The position numbers were made by a program, and so were the translations under genes. Positions 1 through 9,125 of a stretch of DNA of 36,296 bases are shown piece after piece. The stretch is taken from positions 1-36,296 of the forward strand of contig JAFYBN010000017.1 of assembly GCA_017540175.1 (NCBI GenBank). Reading direction: 5' to 3'. Numbering within the stretch: position 1 is the stretch's first letter; each line of letters starts with the position of its first letter. The notes under the pieces are model-generated. The model saw only the letters and a list, made by a program, of their open reading frames with translations, searched no databases and was not told where the DNA came from. The stretch comes from Clostridia bacterium. GTDB lineage: Bacteria; Bacillota; Clostridia; Oscillospirales; CAG-272.

Positions 1-366
1 CATGGAGACCCACCGCTCCTGATCGATCATCTGCACGACGCGGTAGAGGATGGCGGCGTTCGCGATCTTGTTGACGGCGCCGCGGAAGATCTTCCCGAGC
101 ATGCCGCCCTGTTCGCCGAGCTTTTCGAGGATCGCCTTGTATTTCTCCTCGAGCTCCGCGCCTTTGAGGGTGTTCATGTCCGCCCAGCCGTACCCCGCGG
201 GGATGCCCGTGTCGCGCTTATACGGCGGCTTCGCGTACTCGTCGGACATTTTCAGGAAGATCAGGTAGGTGAGCTGTTCCAGATAATCGCCGTAGGAAAC
301 CCCGTCGTCCCGGAGCGGATTGCACATCCCCCAGACTTTGGAGATGATGGTGGTGTTGTCAGACAT
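1..366 (-). CDS. hsdM: Type I restriction-modification DNA methyltransferase subunit M, N-terminal fragment
   Basis: HsdM is the adenine methyltransferase subunit of a type I restriction-modification complex; it works with HsdS, which chooses the site, and HsdR, which cuts. Only the first 122 codons are present, because the gene runs off the left edge in frame. The visible part is the helical HsdM N-terminal domain, with family-typical stretches such as DYLEQLTYLIFLKM and the segment around GYGWADM. The SAM-binding and NPPF catalytic motifs would lie outside the window. The start codon at 366 overlaps the end of the upstream ATPase gene by 8 bp (ATGTCTGA), so the two are probably translationally coupled. 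It is GC-rich like hsdR and unlike the AT-rich ATPase gene next to it. Confidence 0.93.
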   Translation of the reverse strand, partial: MSDNTTIISKVWGMCNPLRDDGVSYGDYLEQLTYLIFLKMSDEYAKPPYKRDTGIPAGYGWADMNTLKGAELEEKYKAILEKLGEQGGMLGKIFRGAVNKIANAAILYRVVQMIDQERWVSM

Positions 367-2395
367 TTTCTCCCCCCCTGTCATCATTGAGTATATCTCT
401 GATGACTTCAAAAACTCCAACAAAGTTCTCAAAGTTTATATTATCAAACGGAGGCTGCTTCTCTAATATCATTTTCGCAAACTTTGATTTAGGCAAGGCA
501 TAGTTAATGTCATTATCATCACTTATACTTGTTACTCTTTCTCCACTTGAACCATCAATTATTGCGATGCTCGAAGAACCACACTTGCTTCCCTTTTCAC
601 AGAATCGATCGATTTCTTTCGCTATGCCACGTTTATCAAACTCTTTTCCAATAAACAATCGACGTGTTATTCCAGTTTTAGGATCATACCATTCAATTCT
701 GATTTCATCATCAGTGTAATAGTGCTCAATACAAATATCAGGGGTATCCACACGATGAGGAGGTATTGGCAGAACAAAAGAATATACATTATTCCCCCAT
801 TTCTTGAACCTCTGACCATCAACAGACATTCTTTTGTTTGTGCTCTCAACATCCCTGTCACAAATAAAGATATATTTCACAGGTTGAGGAAGCTTAGCAA
901 CACTTTCGCACAATTCAACCAACACTTTGTTGCCCATATTCAGCTTATGTTCTGCTGGCTCTTCACTTCCAAGTGGTTCATACTCAAAGAACTCAATATC
1001 AAGATCCTCGAACAAACCACAAAGTGAATCGCTGTTCTTCAGGCTTTCATACGCAGCTTTCAGGTGTTTCCAATCAGTAGAGCCTTCAGTAACTATTATT
1101 GCTTTTTCCCCTAATGGAAGAGCTTCTATTGCTTTGTTTACATCATCTTGAAACATCTCCGTTCCTTTGATATACTCGTATGCTCTCCTAAATTCGGAAA
1201 ATTTCTCTGTAGTTATTTTTTCGGCACTTGGCATTTCATACATACAAAAACCATCTTCACCAAAACAATCTTTCATTCCGAGCAAAAACAAAGGAGCATG
1301 AGAGGTTATGATAAATTGGATTTTGGGAAATAGTTTGATCAATTCTGGAAGTACTTCTTTTTGAAGTATTGAATGTAAGTGCAATTCGATTTCATCGATT
1401 ACAACAATGCCGGTGATTTCATTGGGATGGAAACTTTGATTGATATTATTATTATCAGCATATCTAATAATTGTTGCAAATAGATTAAAAAGCGCAATTT
1501 GTCCTGTTGATAATGAATCAAGAGTTGGGCAAACAGTAGTGTTATCGCAGTTTTTCACAATTCTAAAACGCGAACCACCGCTATTTCTGTAATTCAATTG
1601 AAAATACACTTCTTCGCCCAGTATCTTACTTAAGATCATTTCCAAATTGTTTCTCGACTGTCTAAGCAACAAGAGGTTAGGTGCGCTCGTGTGATCTAAT
1701 CGCAAAGAACTTCCGTCTACTGCGATATCTGCTCGAGAATCAGCAATAACATCCAAAAGCCACTGGAGATTAGTAGAAGTGACATCTTGAACAATAATCG
1801 GGTTTTTTAGCACACCTTTCCAACTTTCGTTTAGTGAAGGGTGCAGGTATTCTTCTGTTTGATAGTATCTGTCTCCCATCCACGATGGTTTTTCATATCG
1901 ATCTGGTCCAAAATAACAAAAAACATTATTGTCCCAGATTTGTGATATCGTCTCTATGTCTGCTGTTACTTGTTTCTTGCTTTCATCGTACTTCCAAGAG
2001 ACAGCAACTGTATCATCATCTATTGCTCTCTTAAATTCATCAACAGCAATGTTACCGTGTTTAAAAATGTATTTACTATTTTTGCTGTTCAAAAATGATA
2101 TATACGAAAACATAAATGAGGTTCCATGATGTATTTCTGCGGCAGATAGTATTTTGTAATATTGATACCCATTCTGTCCGCTTGGAACTCTTGCGTTTGT
2201 GTACGCTTCCCCTGCCATTTCAAAAAAAGCATCAACAATATTTGACAGAACAGTCGATTTACCTGTCCCATTTTCTCCTACTAAAACAACCGGTTTTGGA
2301 TTACCATTCTCAAAAAAAGGAAAATCAATACGGACTTCTGATAATGGCCCCACATTTTTGTCAATTAACTGCTTTATGTACATTCTATTATCCAT
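359..2395 (-). CDS. OLD-like AAA ATPase with TOPRIM nuclease domain, inside the type I RM operon
   Basis: The protein has 678 residues. An ABC/SMC-type ATPase comes first: Walker A GENGTGKS at 40-47, signature-like LSTGQ at 295-299, Walker B ending in ID-E at 333-335, and a TSHAP switch at 364-368. A TOPRIM-like part follows, with the acidic residue in TEGSTDWKHL (E437) and DRD (D513, D515). ATPase plus TOPRIM is the architecture of OLD-family nucleases, which include the Gabija GajA subunit; a DNA-damaging or phage-sensing role is inference. An upstream ATG at 2413 is in frame, but the ATG at 2395 has a GGAGG at the right distance, so I use that. The gene begins 1 bp after hsdS and overlaps hsdM by 8 bp. 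It is strikingly AT-rich compared with hsdR and hsdM, suggesting acquisition. AAA proteins within type I RM loci (Rlo-type genes) are known, but I cannot assign a named family. Confidence 0.85.
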   Translation of the reverse strand: MDNRMYIKQLIDKNVGPLSEVRIDFPFFENGNPKPVVLVGENGTGKSTVLSNIVDAFFEMAGEAYTNARVPSGQNGYQYYKILSAAEIHHGTSFMFSYISFLNSKNSKYIFKHGNIAVDEFKRAIDDDTVAVSWKYDESKKQVTADIETISQIWDNNVFCYFGPDRYEKPSWMGDRYYQTEEYLHPSLNESWKGVLKNPIIVQDVTSTNLQWLLDVIADSRADIAVDGSSLRLDHTSAPNLLLLRQSRNNLEMILSKILGEEVYFQLNYRNSGGSRFRIVKNCDNTTVCPTLDSLSTGQIALFNLFATIIRYADNNNINQSFHPNEITGIVVIDEIELHLHSILQKEVLPELIKLFPKIQFIITSHAPLFLLGMKDCFGEDGFCMYEMPSAEKITTEKFSEFRRAYEYIKGTEMFQDDVNKAIEALPLGEKAIIVTEGSTDWKHLKAAYESLKNSDSLCGLFEDLDIEFFEYEPLGSEEPAEHKLNMGNKVLVELCESVAKLPQPVKYIFICDRDVESTNKRMSVDGQRFKKWGNNVYSFVLPIPPHRVDTPDICIEHYYTDDEIRIEWYDPKTGITRRLFIGKEFDKRGIAKEIDRFCEKGSKCGSSSIAIIDGSSGERVTSISDDNDINYALPKSKFAKMILEKQPPFDNINFENFVGVFEVIRDILNDDRGGENV

Positions 2396-2396
2396 G

Positions 2397-3704
2397 TTAG
2401 ATCCTCCCTTCAAACGCCTGTTTCAAAACAACTTGACGCATAGAATCTGTTTGTTGTAAGGTTGTTATAATTGTCTTTTCAATAGCATCACATACCGATA
2501 AGCGCGATTCTATCTCCGATACAATTTCTCGTTGTTCATCGAACGAAGCAAAAGGAAAGTGTAATGCACGAACCCGCTCTTTGTTCAATGCTTTTTGGTT
2601 ATTCCCAGACCCAACACGTCGCGTATTTTCATAATTCAGCTGAAAGAAATAATATAAATATTCAGGTTGGCATGGTGTCATGGATACAAGGATAGCAGCA
2701 GTATTCTGGTTATGAGCCGCTGGCACTTTGAGTATTGCGGCTTGCCCTCTTGTCTTTCCTTCTCCAATCATTGCCAACATGACAGTTCCAACTGGCTGAA
2801 TCTTAGTTGAAGCGTGTGCTAATCCCTCATCTGTTATCTGTTCTTTTGTTCTATATATATGGGAAAACTGGACTTCGCCACTACTAACCCAGTTGATATT
2901 ACCTTTCCAGTATTCCGGTACTTGTCTGCTTGGTGTAGCACCAACTTCAACAGAAAAAACATCACCTATTCTTAGCTTTAACCATGTCGAAGGAAGATCA
3001 AGATGTATTTCGTTTTCATCACCAGCTATATCTTTATATATGGGATCAATAATCCTAATCGATTCATAATCTGTTTTGGGAGAAATATCACGAGGCTGGT
3101 TACGCCACATAGAAGTAAGTTTTCCCTCAAACGCCTCCTTCAACACCGCCTGTCGATACACCTCAAGCTGCTGCTTCGTCTTTTTCAGCGTCTCCACGCC
3201 CGCGTCCAGCTGGGAGAAGAGTTCTTCGATCCGGGCGACGATGCGCTGCTGTTCGGGAAGGGGAGGGACGGGGATAGTACATTCAGATAGGTATTTGGCT
3301 GGAACTCTCTTCTGACCTGCACTTCCAGTCATATTTCCTTGACACTGTAAACGAAATGCTTTTTGTGAGAGGAAATAAAAGAGCCACTCACGGGTAATTT
3401 GCTCTAAATGAGGGCGTAGTACAATAAACTCTGTACTTCCTGCCCCATATCCATTCAGAAGATTAGAAACTATAGCTCCTTTTCCATTTTCCATACAGGG
3501 TGTTATCTTGGCAAATAGCACATCATCATTCTTGAACACTGAATAACTCTTGATACTAGAAACTGAAATTGTCTGACTGTAATCCACAAAACCCGTTGTT
3601 GAAACTGATTCCATGGGAATAAAGGTTATTATTGTATCTGGGGATAAAGGCACCGTCTTTTTCGGATTTATATCGCATACTTGTGATAGTTTCCAAATTT
3701 CCAT
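2397..3704 (-). CDS. hsdS: Type I restriction-modification specificity subunit S
   Basis: HsdS selects the bipartite DNA target for the HsdM and HsdR subunits. The 435-residue protein is full length for the family and has the usual two-fold layout: target-recognition domain 1 (about 1-145), a helical spacer starting with PPLPEQQRIVARIEEL (about 148-198), target-recognition domain 2 (about 225-380) and a final helical repeat starting at FDEQREIVSEIES. Both helical repeats end in the family-typical K-AFEG. The start at 3704 lies 2 bp after the hsdR stop. No strong ribosome binding site precedes it, so coupling to hsdR translation is likely. The two recognition domains are AT-rich while the first spacer (about 3125-3290) is GC-rich, which fits exchange of recognition domains between alleles. 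The recognised sequence cannot be read from the protein. Confidence 0.93.
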   Translation of the reverse strand: MEIWKLSQVCDINPKKTVPLSPDTIITFIPMESVSTTGFVDYSQTISVSSIKSYSVFKNDDVLFAKITPCMENGKGAIVSNLLNGYGAGSTEFIVLRPHLEQITREWLFYFLSQKAFRLQCQGNMTGSAGQKRVPAKYLSECTIPVPPLPEQQRIVARIEELFSQLDAGVETLKKTKQQLEVYRQAVLKEAFEGKLTSMWRNQPRDISPKTDYESIRIIDPIYKDIAGDENEIHLDLPSTWLKLRIGDVFSVEVGATPSRQVPEYWKGNINWVSSGEVQFSHIYRTKEQITDEGLAHASTKIQPVGTVMLAMIGEGKTRGQAAILKVPAAHNQNTAAILVSMTPCQPEYLYYFFQLNYENTRRVGSGNNQKALNKERVRALHFPFASFDEQREIVSEIESRLSVCDAIEKTIITTLQQTDSMRQVVLKQAFEGRI

Positions 3705-3706
3705 CT

Positions 3707-6445
3707 TTACGCCACCAACTCAACATTCATTTCCATCAAAATCTCCTCATACCGCTCCCCGAACACCTCATAGAATCTGCCCAGTCCGCCGCGGCGGTCG
3801 AAGGGGGTGAGGTCGAGGTCTTCCGGCTCTATGGCGAGGGACGCGGCGATGTGATCCCGGATCAGCCGGAGCCATTCCATCTGCTCCTCCGTGAAGTGAA
3901 CCGCGCCCGCGTTCCGCCGAAGCGTCCACTGCTGGAAGTTGTACCCGACGCGCTCCGCAAACGGCGTGAGGCTGTCCGCCGCTCCCAGCTCGAACCGGAT
4001 GATCGAAATGAGGTCGGCAAGCTGTGTCACCGTGCCGCGCTTCACCTTTTCAGGCTTCTTGATGGCGTAGCAGTCCCACAGCCTCTCCACCGTCACGCCC
4101 TTTTCCGTCAGCTTCCCGTACAGCGCTTTCAGCTTTTCGATCACCATCGGGCGTTCTTTATACGTCTCGCTGTACACGATCCGCAGGGCGATGATCTCGT
4201 CCCGGTTCTCTTCAATGAACTCCCGGAATGTGCGGATCGCGCGGTCCGCGTTCTCTTCCTTCTGGCTGTCGAACCCTGCGAAGAGCACCGAATCGAGGTT
4301 GACGTTGTCGATGATCTGATCGTGGCTCCGCCGGATGTTTTCTACAGTGTCCCGCACGTCGGGATCAAAAAAGGGAGCCGTCGCTTCTGCGAGCATTTCG
4401 TGCTGCGCCGCATTCCGCTGTTCTTCGGTGGGATCGGGCGTCCCGGTGTTTTCGATTGCCCTCTCCCGGATCCGGTCTTCGTCGAAGGCGTCGAGCAGCT
4501 TCCCGGCGACCTCTCCGGCGTCCTCGCCCACCTTGCGGCAGAATACCTGCTTTTCCTCCCGGGTCATGCGGCTGTTCAGGCGGGTGAGCCGGCTGGCGAG
4601 AGAGGTGAGGGTGTCCGCGTCCTTCGCCCCGAGCGCGACGTTCATCATCAGCTCTTTCAGAGAGACGGAGGGTTTGCGTTCCAGCGGGCGAGTGTCCGTC
4701 TTCTTCGATTTCGTGACGCCGACCGCGTCCACGATGACGAAGTGGTCCTTGTTTTCGGTGGCGGAGGGCGTGACCTCCTGCAAGGCTTCCTTGTCGAGCG
4801 TGCGGGTGCCCCGGCCCTTCATCTGCTCGAAATAGTTCCGGCTCCGCACGTCCCGCATGAAAATCAGACATTCGAGCGGCTTGACGTCCGTTCCGGTGGC
4901 GATCATATCCACCGTGACAGCGATGCGGGGATAATACCCGTTCCGGAACGAGCTGAGCACGGATTCCGGGTTTTCCGCCGCATAGGTGATCTTCCGGCAG
5001 AAATCGTTCCCCTCGCCGAACTCGTCCCGCACGATCTGGATGATGTCGTCGGCATGACTGTCGGTCTTGGCGAAGATCAGAGTCTTCGGCACCTCTTTCC
5101 GCCGCGGGAACAGGGTGGTAAAGAGCTGTTCTTTGAACGTGCGGATCACGGTGCGGATCTGGCTGGGGTTGACGATATCGCGGTCGAGCTGAGGCGGGAT
5201 ATAGTTGACGTCCTCGTCCATCTGTTCCCAGCGTTTTTCCCGCGACAGCCGGTTCCGCTTCTCGATCATCTGCTTCATGAGGAACGAGCCGTTTTTCGTG
5301 ACTTCCGTCTCGATCACGAAAACATCCTCGCCGACGTTCACGCCGTCCACGATAGCCTGCTCGCGGGGGTACTCACTGACGATATTCTGCTCGAAGAACG
5401 CGAAGGTCCGGTTGTCCGGCGTCGCGGTCAGTCCGACGATGAAGGCGTCGAAATAGGTCAGCACCTGGCTCCAGACGTTGTAAATGGAGCGGTGACACTC
5501 ATCCACCACGATGCAGTCGAAGAACTCCGGCGGGATCTTTGCGTTGTAGACGACTTCCTTCGGCGCTTTGGTATCCGCCGTCCTGTATTCAGCGAACGGG
5601 GTTTCCTCGAGGGATTCGTCCAGTTCCTCGCCTTTCAGGATGGAATACATCCGCTGGATCGTACTGATGCAGACCTGCACGTCCCGGGAAATGCTGGACG
5701 TTTTCAGCCGCTGGACGCCGTAGATATTGGCGAAGGAGCGGGGATCGTCGTTCGGGACATACGCGCGGAATGCGTCTTCCGCCTGTTCGCCGAGGCTTTT
5801 CGTGTCCACGAGGAACAGGATACGGTTCATTTTGCCGTATTTCAGCAGACGGTAAACCGAGGTAATGGCGGTGAAGGTCTTTCCGGCTCCCGTTGCCATC
5901 TGCACAAGGGCTTTCGGTTTGTTCGCGGCAAAGGAGGCGTCGAGGTTATGGATCGCCGTGATCTGGCACTTCCGGAACCCGGTTTCATCGAATGGGGGAA
6001 AGTGCTTCATGTTGTTCCGGATTGTATCCGGCTGATTCAGAAGGGAGCGCAGGGTTTCCGGACGGAAGAAGGAAAACACGACGCGGGAGCGGAATTTGAG
6101 ATCATGGTAATCCGTAAACCGGACGAGCTTGTCCGTCGCTTCATAGGCAAACCGGATCTCATAATCCGTTTTCATGTATTTGAACACACTGTGCGCGTAA
6201 TCTGAGGACTGGATCTCCACGGTCGTGATATTCTCTCCGAGCTCGCTCTTCTTGGCTTCGATCACACCGACCGGAAGACCGTCCACAAAAAGGGCGTAGT
6301 CCACCGGTCCCGTCGAAGTCGGGAACTCCCGTACTGCCACCCCGGGACCTGCCGACGGATTCAGGCGTTTCATATCCTGTACGATCCAGCCGGACTGTTC
6401 CAGTTTTTTGTCGATCACCGCCCGCGCTTTTGCCTCCGGCGTCAT
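3707..6445 (-). CDS. hsdR: Type I restriction endonuclease subunit R
   Basis: HsdR is the ATP-driven translocase and nuclease of the type I complex. The 912-residue protein begins with a PD-(D/E)xK nuclease domain: D49 in PVDYALF and E63-x-K65 in VIEAKK. A superfamily 2 helicase follows, with Walker A ATGAGKT ending at residue 190, DECH at 315-318, GLTATP, and the late motifs ATGTDVKP and QMKGRGTRT. The C-terminal part carries the coupling region. All key residues seen are intact and the frame is unbroken, so the enzyme is probably functional. The start at 6445 follows a GGAGG. It is the first gene of the operon and is preceded by a good promoter. Length and motif set resemble the shorter HsdR types. 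Confidence 0.95.
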   Translation of the reverse strand: MTPEAKARAVIDKKLEQSGWIVQDMKRLNPSAGPGVAVREFPTSTGPVDYALFVDGLPVGVIEAKKSELGENITTVEIQSSDYAHSVFKYMKTDYEIRFAYEATDKLVRFTDYHDLKFRSRVVFSFFRPETLRSLLNQPDTIRNNMKHFPPFDETGFRKCQITAIHNLDASFAANKPKALVQMATGAGKTFTAITSVYRLLKYGKMNRILFLVDTKSLGEQAEDAFRAYVPNDDPRSFANIYGVQRLKTSSISRDVQVCISTIQRMYSILKGEELDESLEETPFAEYRTADTKAPKEVVYNAKIPPEFFDCIVVDECHRSIYNVWSQVLTYFDAFIVGLTATPDNRTFAFFEQNIVSEYPREQAIVDGVNVGEDVFVIETEVTKNGSFLMKQMIEKRNRLSREKRWEQMDEDVNYIPPQLDRDIVNPSQIRTVIRTFKEQLFTTLFPRRKEVPKTLIFAKTDSHADDIIQIVRDEFGEGNDFCRKITYAAENPESVLSSFRNGYYPRIAVTVDMIATGTDVKPLECLIFMRDVRSRNYFEQMKGRGTRTLDKEALQEVTPSATENKDHFVIVDAVGVTKSKKTDTRPLERKPSVSLKELMMNVALGAKDADTLTSLASRLTRLNSRMTREEKQVFCRKVGEDAGEVAGKLLDAFDEDRIRERAIENTGTPDPTEEQRNAAQHEMLAEATAPFFDPDVRDTVENIRRSHDQIIDNVNLDSVLFAGFDSQKEENADRAIRTFREFIEENRDEIIALRIVYSETYKERPMVIEKLKALYGKLTEKGVTVERLWDCYAIKKPEKVKRGTVTQLADLISIIRFELGAADSLTPFAERVGYNFQQWTLRRNAGAVHFTEEQMEWLRLIRDHIAASLAIEPEDLDLTPFDRRGGLGRFYEVFGERYEEILMEMNVELVA

Positions 6446-6669: not shown

Positions 6670-6712
6670 ATGTTCTGAAAAAGGGCCATGCTTCCATGAC
6701 CCTTTTACCTAC

Positions 6713-6801
6713 CGGAGAAGGTGGGATTTGAACCCACGCAGCGCTATTAACGCCCTACGAGATTTCGAGTCACGCCTCTTCGACCTCTTGAGTACTTCTC
6801 C
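6713..6801 (-). tRNA. tRNA-Ser (anticodon CGA)
   Basis: The minus strand gives an 89-nt tRNA with acceptor arms GGAGAAG and CTTCTCC, discriminator G, anticodon loop CTCGAAA (anticodon CGA, reading UCG), a long variable arm as expected for serine, and T arm GTGGG-TTCAAAT-CCCAC. The anticodon stem CGTGA/TCTCG contains one T-T mismatch. No CCA is encoded. There is no convincing promoter directly upstream; the nearest good one lies about 210 bp upstream, behind a partial copy of the same gene. Confidence 0.9.
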
Positions 6802-6803
6802 GT
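6761..6803. repeat. 43-bp direct repeat, copy within tRNA-Ser (mate at 6964-7006)
   Basis: Bases 6761-6803 and 6964-7006 are identical over 43 bp. The first copy covers the 5' half of tRNA-Ser, from the acceptor arm to the 3' side of the anticodon stem. The second copy stands alone. The 160 bp between the copies contain no recognisable gene. Confidence 0.92.
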
Positions 6804-6963: not shown

Positions 6964-7004
6964 GATTTCGAGTCACGCCTCTTCGACCTCTTGAGTACTT
7001 CTCC
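6964..7004 (-). pseudogene. Truncated duplicate of tRNA-Ser (5' half only)
   Basis: This 41-nt stretch is identical to the 5' part of tRNA-Ser(CGA), including the acceptor 5' strand, the complete D arm, the anticodon loop and the first bases of the 3' anticodon strand. The following sequence (CCGGGTCC on the minus strand) has no variable arm, T arm or acceptor 3' strand, so it cannot form a tRNA. It sits 4-5 nt behind a strong promoter, the position the intact gene should have. It is therefore likely that the original 5' end remained here when about 200 bp were inserted or duplicated. Confidence 0.85.
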
Positions 7005-7014
7005 GTGTTTCGCT

Positions 7015-7196: not shown

Positions 7197-8585
7197 TCAG
7201 CAGTCGAAATCCTTGAGGCGCTCGCGGACTTTGTCATACCACCCGCCCTTGAAAAACAGGCAGGCGAAGGGGTCGGCGGCGAAATAGTCGATCACGCCGT
7301 CCTTCTCGACGGAGCCGAGCATCGCCAGCGCCCGGCAGCCGCCGCCGCAGGTGCCGAACCATGCGCACTTGCCGCACTCCCTGCTGTTTTTGCGCAGGGT
7401 ATGGTGATTCGCGCAGACCGCGTCGTGCCACTTCCCGCCCTCGATCACGTCGCGCAGGCGGCGCTCGTGCAGGTTGTCGCATTCATAGCCGAATTCCGCG
7501 GCGTAGCCCGCCATCTGAAGGCACGGAACGGCGTCGCCCTCGCAGGTGACGTTCATCATCGTCCGGTTTCCGACGCAGACCGGTCTTGTGGGAGTCACCT
7601 TGCCGTCCGGCGAGTTCACGTTTTCCATGTGGAAACGTTTTTCGGCGGGGTACGCGTGCAGAAACTGCCACACGATGACGTCCATTTTGTGATCCCCGCG
7701 CATATAGCGGTCGACGAGGTCGAGCGTTTTTTCGAAATACTCCGGGACCGAAAGCGTCTCGTCCGCTCCGTTTTTGATCCAGCGGGGGACCGCGGTCGTA
7801 CGGATGAGCCGGGTCGTGCGCACGCCCATCGAATCGAGCAGATCGAGCGTTTCGCCGAGCGAATCGAGATTGCCCCGGAAGACCTGCGTCTGCGCCATCG
7901 TGTCAAAACCTTCCGCAATGCAGAGGCGGAACGCGTCGAGCGTCCTCTTTTCCGCGCCCCGAAAGCCCCGCATCCGGTCGTGATGACCGACGCCGTCAAA
8001 GGAGATCTTGATCAGAGGGGAGCAGTTCAGACGCCGGAACTCTTCGAGGATCTCACGCGTCAGAAAATAGCCGTTCGTCGTCAGCTTGCCGAGCACCATG
8101 CCGCGTTTATAGATCTCCCGCACCGCGTCGAGAAAACGGGGGTAGAGCATCGGCTCGCCCCCGGTGAGCGTGATCGCGTGCATCCCGCATTCGGCGGCCT
8201 GATCGAAGAGATCCATGAGCTCGTCCCAGTCCCACTCCTTCATCACGTCGGCGTTGTCCGCCGCGTTGAAGCAGTGGAGACAGTTGTAGTTGCACTTGCC
8301 GGTGATCATGAGGTTCATCTTCGGAACGAAGCGGTGGTCGTATTTTCTGTACCGCGACCAGTCGTCGGGAGCGCAGCCCTTTTCGCAGGGGGCGACGACG
8401 CCTTGTTCCGCGAGGCGCCTCAGCTCCTCGCTTTCTTCGAGCTCATGCGCGCCGTCGCATTTGAGGAGCAACTCGAACGTGTCCGCGTCGACGCGGATCG
8501 GGTTTTCGGCATACCGAAAATACACTCCGTGGGGGGCGTATTTCCATGCCCGCAGCGCGTAATTTTCGGTCAGTCTGTAAAACAT
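7197..8585 (-). CDS. Radical SAM/SPASM enzyme, probable RiPP maturase
   Basis: This 462-residue protein has the radical SAM cluster motif CNYNCLHC (C98, C102, C105), a glycine-rich SAM-binding LTGGEPMLYP, and a C-terminal SPASM-type cysteine set (CVGNRTMMN, then C404-x2-C407-x5-C413-x3-C417 and a late Cys in DPFAC). Such domains bind auxiliary iron-sulfur clusters and are common in enzymes that modify ribosomal peptides. The first 70 residues look like a small PqqD-like peptide-binding domain (FELLLKCDG), which in related enzymes recognises leader peptides. The gene starts 3 bp after a short protein with a Nif11-like leader and has no ribosome binding site of its own, so the two are probably translated together. 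The reaction (thioether, C-C link or other) cannot be told from sequence. No exporter is adjacent. Confidence 0.88.
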   Translation of the reverse strand: MFYRLTENYALRAWKYAPHGVYFRYAENPIRVDADTFELLLKCDGAHELEESEELRRLAEQGVVAPCEKGCAPDDWSRYRKYDHRFVPKMNLMITGKCNYNCLHCFNAADNADVMKEWDWDELMDLFDQAAECGMHAITLTGGEPMLYPRFLDAVREIYKRGMVLGKLTTNGYFLTREILEEFRRLNCSPLIKISFDGVGHHDRMRGFRGAEKRTLDAFRLCIAEGFDTMAQTQVFRGNLDSLGETLDLLDSMGVRTTRLIRTTAVPRWIKNGADETLSVPEYFEKTLDLVDRYMRGDHKMDVIVWQFLHAYPAEKRFHMENVNSPDGKVTPTRPVCVGNRTMMNVTCEGDAVPCLQMAGYAAEFGYECDNLHERRLRDVIEGGKWHDAVCANHHTLRKNSRECGKCAWFGTCGGGCRALAMLGSVEKDGVIDYFAADPFACLFFKGGWYDKVRERLKDFDC

Positions 8586-8588
8586 CGG

Positions 8589-8972
8589 TCAGCAGCCCTG
8601 GCTCTTCCGTTCCTGTTTCGCCTGGTATTCGTCGCGGATCCTTTTGACGTCGTCCCAGTAAAGGTTATCCGTTCCGTAGAGGTTATTCTTCGAGTATTCA
8701 TACGCTTCGTCGTACGTCGCAAACCCCGTGATTTCCTCGCCGGTTTTGTTGTTGATGACCCGCCACGGCATACTCGATCTTGGGTCGGTTGATTTGAAAA
8801 TATGCCCGCCCGCGACCTGATCCAGCATTTCGTCGGGCAGCTCGATTTTTTCCTCGCCCGCAAGCTTCAAAAGCTCGTCAAGGCTTTTGCACGCCCTCGC
8901 CTTCTCCTTCTGCTCGTCTGTGAGAGAATCCCACAGCCCGGCGAGCGTCGCGTTCAGCTTTTCGTTTTCCAT
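8589..8972 (-). CDS. Putative RiPP precursor with Nif11-like leader and Gly-Gly motif
   Basis: The gene encodes 127 residues. The first 56 are helical and acidic, with LTDEQKEKARACKSLDELL and ending LPDEMLDQVAGG, a pattern typical of Nif11-type leader peptides with a double-glycine processing site (G55, G56). The remaining 71 residues are unusually long and ordered for a core. They contain WRVINNKTGEEITGF and FATYDEAYEYSKN, resembling a small folded domain, and finish in a lone Cys (SQGC). The ribosome binding site AAGGAG lies 11 nt before the start. The adjacent maturase supports a RiPP role. Whether the whole C-terminal part is released as product, or serves as a substrate-carrying domain, is open. 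No Cys-rich or Thr-rich core typical of sactipeptides is present. Confidence 0.75.
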   Translation of the reverse strand: MENEKLNATLAGLWDSLTDEQKEKARACKSLDELLKLAGEEKIELPDEMLDQVAGGHIFKSTDPRSSMPWRVINNKTGEEITGFATYDEAYEYSKNNLYGTDNLYWDDVKRIRDEYQAKQERKSQGC

Positions 8973-9125
8973 TTTTCTGTTTTCTCCTTAGGTGATGGAT
9001 GAATGGGGGCTTGATATAATACGGCGGGGCTCGGAGAACGCGCCGCTTGACGGACGGTTCCCGCCGGGTCGAAGGCTTTTCGGAATCCTCGGCGGAACCC
9101 CCGTCCGATGAGGGCTGCTTTTCGC

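What the first reader, a model, noticed from the sequence alone, without database searches (positions are those of the whole stretch)
7197..8972. Candidate RiPP cassette: Nif11-leader precursor with a long, ordered core and a dedicated radical SAM/SPASM enzyme
The 127-residue protein has a Nif11-like leader ending in VAGG, and the maturase starts 3 bp later without its own ribosome binding site. Its PqqD-like N-terminus could bind the leader. Known families explain leader and enzyme. What is unusual is the 71-residue core, which looks like a small folded domain with one terminal Cys rather than a Cys- or Thr-rich peptide, and the absence of an exporter. The product type is not predictable and may be new.
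Basis: partly seen in the sequence, partly recalled or inferred. Interest (0 to 1): 0.78.

Follow-up and report, generated by a model that had tools for sequence, protein, structure and literature searches.

The report
Radical-enzyme cassette for an exported mini-protein
Two adjoining genes of an unnamed bacterium, with relatives in ruminant-gut species, appear to make a small folded protein that a radical enzyme modifies, most likely at its last residue, a cysteine, before export; the parts are of known types, but the protein-sized cargo is unusual.

Summary
The pair is real. A 127-aa peptide (8972-8589, minus) whose leader ends in VAGG is followed 3 bp later by a 462-aa radical SAM/SPASM enzyme (8585-7197).

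The window genome has a second cassette (maturase 63% identical, three precursors), partly broken. A third, in another genome of the order, is 68% identical. "No exporter" is explained: one full NHLM peptidase-ABC exporter lies on another contig, in an operon that in a relative also carries precursors and maturase.

The leader is Nif11-like only through relatives; the peptide itself matches no Nif11 model. AlphaFold gives the core three strands and two helices with no confident PDB match, and the enzyme a SuiB-like fold including the N-terminal domain.

Main new evidence: cores of this type in a maturase cassette end in Cys (11 of 12; strict HMM set 8 of 8). Homologous cores with no maturase beside them mostly do not (1 of 8; strict 0 of 5).

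Best reading: a Nif11-class radical SAM RiPP cassette whose cargo is a folded mini-protein and whose target is probably the terminal Cys. The chemistry (my guess: a thioether ring) is untested. New variant of a known kind.

The parts
8589..8972 (-). precursor gene, 127 aa
   Evidence: 37-46% identical to eight precursors of relatives in A3
8984..8989 (-). AAGGAG ribosome-binding site of the precursor, 11 nt before the ATG
   Evidence: sequence
8805..8972 (-). leader, residues 1-56, helical, ends IELPDEMLDQVAGG
   Evidence: AF2 helices 2-14, 19-26, 31-40, 47-50; profile match to Nif11-like leaders 96.5%, E 8.3e-10
8592..8804 (-). core, residues 57-127, predicted three-strand two-helix mini-domain
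   Evidence: AF2 strands 56-60, 70-74, 80-84, helices 87-96, 106-125; homologous cores
8592..8594 (-). codon of Cys127, the only Cys of the core and last residue; proposed target
   Evidence: 11 of 12 cores of this type in maturase cassettes end in Cys; 1 of 8 away from a maturase
7197..8585 (-). radical SAM/SPASM maturase, 462 aa, starts 3 nt after precursor stop
   Evidence: AF2 pLDDT 92.7 and SuiB-like fold
8361..8585 (-). N-terminal domain (about residues 1-75), probable leader-binding (RRE/PqqD-like) domain
   Evidence: AF2 beta-beta-beta-alpha-beta-alpha-beta; alignment to SuiB starts at residue 3
8271..8294 (-). CxxxCxxC radical SAM motif, C98, C102, C105
   Evidence: 46 of 46 rows of A5 and 17 of 17 of A2
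7260..7577 (-). SPASM region, seven auxiliary-cluster Cys (337, 355, 404, 407, 413, 417, 442)
   Evidence: 17 of 17 rows of A2; 46 of 46 of A5 except C442, 45 of 46

Best explanation
A Nif11-class RiPP-like cassette whose cargo is a folded mini-protein. The helical leader of the precursor docks on the N-terminal RRE-like domain of the maturase. The SPASM enzyme then makes a 5'-deoxyadenosyl radical that modifies the C-terminal tail of the core at or through Cys127; my best guess is a single thioether that ties the terminal Cys back to an upstream residue (a ranthipeptide- or sactipeptide-like ring closing the tail). The NHLM peptidase-ABC exporter, encoded on another contig, cuts after Gly56 and secretes the 71-residue product. 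Shown by computation: gene pair, homology, recurrence in relatives, exporter co-occurrence, predicted folds, association of the terminal Cys with the maturase. Inferred: leader docking, Cys as the site, export in trans. Guessed: thioether chemistry. Biological role (competition or signalling among gut bacteria) is not known.
For: Second cassette in the same genome and eight further loci with leader peptide plus maturase in one clade. AF2 with Foldseek and VIA: best matches include peptide-modifying SPASM enzymes, SuiB over residues 3-444, then anSME, SkfB, ChlB, the sactipeptide-thioether entries 5wgg/5why, PqqE. Exporter: one TIGR03796 match over cut-off in the genome; 9 of 10 other clade genomes have one at E<=1e-150, 8 over cut-off; among 59 relatives (window genome included) 4 of 4 with a maturase relative have it and 6 of 55 without (Fisher p 4.6e-4). 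The exporter operon of the window genome is collinear with L063, where precursors and maturase sit inside it (ABC 82 and 79%, STAS 72%, MatE 76%, SpoIIE 73% identity). Terminal Cys: 11 of 12 cores of this type in maturase cassettes against 1 of 8 away from one (p 7.7e-4); strict HMM set 8 of 8 against 0 of 5. 46 of 47 cores ending within 200 nt upstream of a maturase in the wider family hold at least one Cys.
Against: No chemistry is shown. Rows are related (L177 and L178 are near copies), so the Fisher values are only a guide, and the Cys-lacking cores mostly differ in leader as well. One core of this type beside a maturase (L063) lacks the terminal Cys; one away from it (L175) has it. Residues around the terminal Cys are not conserved, so no thioether partner can be named. 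P0001 matches no Nif11 model directly. In G265, genome of the nearest maturase, no exporter was found (MAG, 93% complete). Leader-type peptides occur in G020 and G021 without a maturase match. 3 of 24 cores of the clade have no Cys at all. The 46-of-47 figure is partly due to Cys-rich zinc-ribbon-like cores elsewhere in the family.
Confidence: 0.6

Rival explanations
1. The enzyme modifies another residue (for example a Trp, Tyr or Lys crosslink of the kind made by SuiB and DarE), and the terminal Cys serves another purpose such as a disulfide or attachment.
For: First Foldseek match is SuiB, a Lys-Trp cyclase (recalled). Trp or Tyr at the W70 position is present in all 12 cores of this type beside a maturase.
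Against: The same aromatic is kept in the six short-leader cores of A8 without a maturase, so it looks structural, whereas the terminal Cys tracks the maturase.
Confidence: 0.2
2. The enzyme oxidises the Cys to another group (for example formylglycine-like chemistry of anSME) without making a ring.
Against: The anSME alignment starts at residue 86, so the N-terminal domain is not matched; I see no sulfatase-type motif around Cys127 (motif recalled, checked by eye only).
Confidence: 0.1
3. The locus is decaying or idle: a remnant of a RiPP operon that lost its exporter.
For: The paralogous C120 cassette has a frameshifted leader in precursor 2 and an in-frame TAG in the maturase; the L066 maturase frame also holds a stop; the exporter is unlinked.
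Against: Both window genes are open with all cluster Cys, a good ribosome-binding site, and a close open pair in G265.
Confidence: 0.08
4. Nif11 precursor of a splicease (TIGR04103; PlpX-like, recalled), cutting at the Tyr-Gly in NNLYGTDN.
For: Weak hit of P0002 to TIGR04103, 65.5 bits; a YG in the core.
Against: Cut-off is 725 bits; none of the other 11 cores has a YG at that place, though one (L062 1693-2040) has a YG elsewhere.
Confidence: 0.02

Closest known systems
Nif11-derived RiPP precursors (TIGR03798/PF07862) with TIGR03796/TIGR03797 exporters, Haft, Basu and Mitchell 2010 (PMC2887384; abstract and section 10 read)
   Same: Long leader, GG cleavage site, paralogous precursors with different cores, the same type of ABC exporter, sometimes with the maturation enzyme elsewhere in the genome.
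   Different: P0001 itself matches no Nif11 model; [quoted passage not shown] passages read)
   Same: One SPASM radical SAM protein as sole candidate maturase of a Nif11-type peptide, with the CxxCx5CxxxC motif.
   Different: TIGR04064 is not among the 25 (of 88) families shown for P0002, and all 25 are far below their cut-offs (best 85.9 bits against 500).
SuiB (streptide maturase), PDB 5v1s/5v1t
   Different: 14% identity; short substrate peptide (recalled).
Sactipeptide thioether synthase CteB (name recalled), PDB 5wgg/5why
   Same: SPASM fold, highest identity among the rows shown (21%).
   Different: Alignment covers residues 83-461 only, so the N-terminal domain is not matched.
Lachnospiraceae C6A11 lah cluster, LahT PCAT (PMC6363468; passages read)
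   Same: Nif11-type precursors with diverse cores and a broadly tolerant GG peptidase exporter in a Lachnospiraceae bacterium.
   Different: lah is a lanthipeptide operon with its own transporter.

Membership tests
Nif11-like leader RiPP precursors (TIGR03798 / PF07862) | Direct model match of the peptide | tested here: not met
   P0001: no Nif11 family at E<=10 in Pfam or NCBIfam; own genome 0 matches to PF07862 at 1e-3
Nif11-like leader RiPP precursors (TIGR03798 / PF07862) | Homology through relatives | tested here: met
   Profile of 12 relatives against 11 leaders picked as Nif11-like: 96.5%, E 8.3e-10 over 44 columns; 25 of 40 family members match TIGR03798 and 20 of 40 PF07862 at E<=1
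Nif11-like leader RiPP precursors (TIGR03798 / PF07862) | GG cleavage site ending the leader | tested here: met
   G55 and G56 invariant in 12 of 12 rows; cleavage itself not tested
Nif11-like leader RiPP precursors (TIGR03798 / PF07862) | NHLM peptidase-ABC exporter in the genome | tested here: met
   C114:27133-29268, 931 bits, cut-off 853
Radical SAM/SPASM peptide maturases | CxxxCxxC and seven-Cys SPASM motif | tested here: met
   Pfam SPASM 20 bits against gathering 21.5, so just under in P0002; 42 of 46 rows match it at E<=1
Radical SAM/SPASM peptide maturases | N-terminal RRE/PqqD-like domain | tested here: inconclusive
   Fold supports it; PqqD not among the 14 families matched by the 46 rows at E<=1
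Sactipeptide / ranthipeptide (thioether) RiPPs | Cys thioether to alpha, beta or gamma carbon | not testable with these tools
   needs mass spectrometry
Sactipeptide / ranthipeptide (thioether) RiPPs | Cys in core beside the maturase | tested here: met
   one Cys, terminal; 46 of 47 closely upstream cores have at least one
Splicease (TIGR04103) | Maturase over the model cut-off | tested here: not met
   65.5 bits against 725
Complex I NDUFS4-like or other known fold for the core | Confident structural match | tested here: inconclusive

The most novel reading that the evidence does not exclude
A class of RiPP in which the modified object is a whole folded mini-protein: one exported domain family circulates in two forms, an unmodified form with a short GG leader and no terminal Cys, and a modified form with a Nif11-type leader and a terminal Cys that the radical SAM enzyme uses to lock the C-terminus. 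Cores are swapped under the same kind of leader (this domain, zinc-ribbon-like, short Trp-rich), and in two relatives a leader-and-core is even fused to the end of the maturase itself.
Probability: 0.3. Interest if true: 0.75.

Novelty: new variant of a known kind. Interest (0 to 1): 0.52.

Why it matters
As far as I recall, radical SAM RiPP enzymes are known mostly on short, unstructured cores. A family acting on protein-sized, probably folded cargo would widen what these enzymes can do and give a natural, genetically paired test (same domain with and without maturase and Cys). The maturase family is sizeable: 359 stretches of a collection of 84,980 species genomes encode a relative at E<=1e-3, and of the 80 best kept, 53 have titles that name ruminant-gut material or RUG/RUI isolates. 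I saw no characterised close member (and the paper searches).

Tried and rejected

Rows dropped: the tree used 93 of 101 maturases (L062 is the same contig as L042; eight rows under 300 bits left out; quick method, SH-aLRT only); the C120 maturase entered from query residue 36 on, after its stop, and the L066 maturase only as its first piece because its frame holds a stop. In the core counts, cores under 8 residues, ORFs of 300 aa or more and duplicates were left out (215 kept); of the 191 cores outside the clade 11 also end in Cys, but none with that Cys as its only one. The 12 cores of this type in maturase cassettes were picked by eye from alignment; they lie from next to the maturase to about 0.9 kb upstream. 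A core HMM seeded with 7 cores (4 of the 12, 3 short-leader ones) recovered 8 of the 12 and 5 of 6 short-leader homologues, and neither L175 nor L189; counts are given for both sets. A6 holds P0001 plus 39 of 121 listed precursors; A7's 11 leaders were picked by eye as Nif11-like and not scanned singly.

Full report
Observation. The leader ends VAGG at residue 56; the 71-residue core has one Cys, the last residue. AAGGAG lies 11 nt before the precursor start, while the maturase starts 3 nt after the precursor stop without an evident site of its own.

The precursor. P0001 alone matches no Nif11 model. Across the wider family, 25 of 40 precursors match TIGR03798 and 20 of 40 PF07862 at E<=1, and the profile of the window-type precursors aligns with Nif11-like leaders at 96.5%, E 8.3e-10. 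So the leader is Nif11-like by descent, not by direct model. AF2 from nine sequences (pLDDT 81.9, pTM 0.56) gives a helical leader and a core of three strands and two helices; the last seven residues, with Cys127, form the lowest block of the core (mean 72). No confident fold match was found.

Family and neighbours. In the window genome a second cassette on contig C120 has three precursors and a 63%-identical maturase, with a frameshift in one leader and an in-frame TAG in the maturase. Counting the window genome, 4 of 59 relatives have a maturase match at 1e-20, 14 of 394 genomes of the order at 1e-40 and 5 of 391 of the class at 1e-55. An alignment scan of 84,980 species genomes found 359 stretches encoding a relative; the best 80 were kept. 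In a quick tree of 93 maturases the window lies in a 12-row clade (SH-aLRT 100) and beside G265/L042 (99). Not every leader-type peptide has a maturase: G020 and G021 carry such peptides (zinc-ribbon-like and other cores) with no maturase match at 1e-20.

Exporter. The missing exporter is on contig C114: of 48 TIGR03796 matches in the genome it is the only one over the cut-off (931 bits). It lies next to a second ABC protein, a lone leader peptide with a Cys-free core, a STAS protein, a MatE protein and a SpoIIE phosphatase. In L063 the same gene order holds three precursors and the maturase between ABC2 and STAS (ABC 82 and 79%, STAS 72%, MatE 76%, SpoIIE 73% identity); L064 and L069 also have the ABC pair in the same locus. 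Of 10 other genomes of the clade 9 have a TIGR03796 match at 1e-150, 8 over cut-off; G265 has none. Among 59 relatives 4 of 4 with a maturase have it against 6 of 55 without (p 4.6e-4). The window cassette is therefore best read as a part of such a system split from its exporter.

The terminal Cys. Twelve precursors in eight maturase loci (window; C120 three; L042 two; L063; L064; L065; L066 two; L067) share the window-type core, and 11 of 12 end in Cys. A single Cys that is also the last residue occurs in 9 of 24 cores of the clade and in 0 of 191 others, of which 11 end in Cys but have more than one. Searching the genomes of the clade with the precursor profile brought up homologous cores away from any maturase: six with a short or truncated GG leader (L177, L178, L184, L186, L192, L194), none ending in Cys, and two with a Nif11-type leader (L175 ends in Cys; L189 does not). 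No maturase-like ORF was found around any of the eight in the larger stretches L199-L206 (3.2 to 16 kb, some whole contigs). Together 11 of 12 against 1 of 8 (p 7.7e-4; rows are related, L177 and L178 near copies, so only a guide). With a strict core HMM the counts are 8 of 8 against 0 of 5. Contrasts occur inside single genomes: G801 has L067 with maturase and Cys, and L192 with neither; G799 has L065 and L184. The other recurrent positions (aromatic, glycine, alanines) are shared by both sets and look structural.

Mechanism. I commit to: leader docking on the N-terminal domain, radical modification of the C-terminal tail at Cys127 (inferred), most simply a thioether (guess), then GG cleavage and export in trans. 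How sure I am: RiPP-like cassette about 0.85; Cys as target about 0.55; thioether about 0.3. LahT, a Lachnospiraceae exporter peptidase, removes Nif11, nitrile hydratase-type and shorter leaders (PMC6363468, passages), which makes export by an unlinked exporter plausible. Small GG-exported proteins can act in biofilm formation rather than killing (PMC4997328, passages), so I do not claim a bacteriocin.

What is known and new. [quoted passage not shown] PMC3023750 passages). New here, within the searches made, are the folded single-Cys core, the same domain with and without maturase and Cys, and leader-and-core tails fused to the maturase in 2 of 101 ORFs, L042 (by pattern) and L045 (by eye). 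I rate it a new variant of a known kind.

Noticed in passing
L042 2053-3561 and L045 1089-2705: Two relatives of the maturase (2 of 101 ORFs looked at) carry a C-terminal leader-like stretch with a GG site and a core-like tail fused to the enzyme, as if enzyme and substrate were one chain.
   Followed up: partly
window 6761-6803 and 6964-7006: Exact 43-nt repeat of the 5' part of the tRNA-Ser gene (6712-6802, minus) between the tRNA and the cassette; looks like an integration scar.
   Followed up: no
L013 2080-2426 and 2875-4266 (contig C120): The second cassette has a frameshift in the leader of precursor 2 and an in-frame TAG early in the maturase; decay or assembly error.
   Followed up: partly
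L014 4731-5391 and 7809-9482 (contig C114): The exporter operon holds a lone leader peptide with a Cys-free core, a STAS protein and a SpoIIE phosphatase, a partner-switch-like set shared with L063.
   Followed up: partly
L015, L016, L044, L045, L081, L121, L125 and others: Many precursors of the wider family have zinc-ribbon-like cores with CxxC pairs; several of the 40 scanned match zinc-ribbon Pfam models weakly. A strange cargo for a RiPP leader.
   Followed up: no
window 359-6445: An AAA ATPase gene, HsdS and HsdR genes of a type I restriction system lie next to the tRNA pair.
   Followed up: no
P0001 residue 28 (window 8889-8891): A Cys in the leader is invariant in the 9 rows of A3 and present in 25 of 40 rows of A6 (column printed, counted by hand), absent in the 11 leaders of A7; purpose unknown.
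   Followed up: partly
L131: A maturase relative lies on a contig titled Thermoplasmata archaeon; horizontal transfer or misbinned contig.
   Followed up: no
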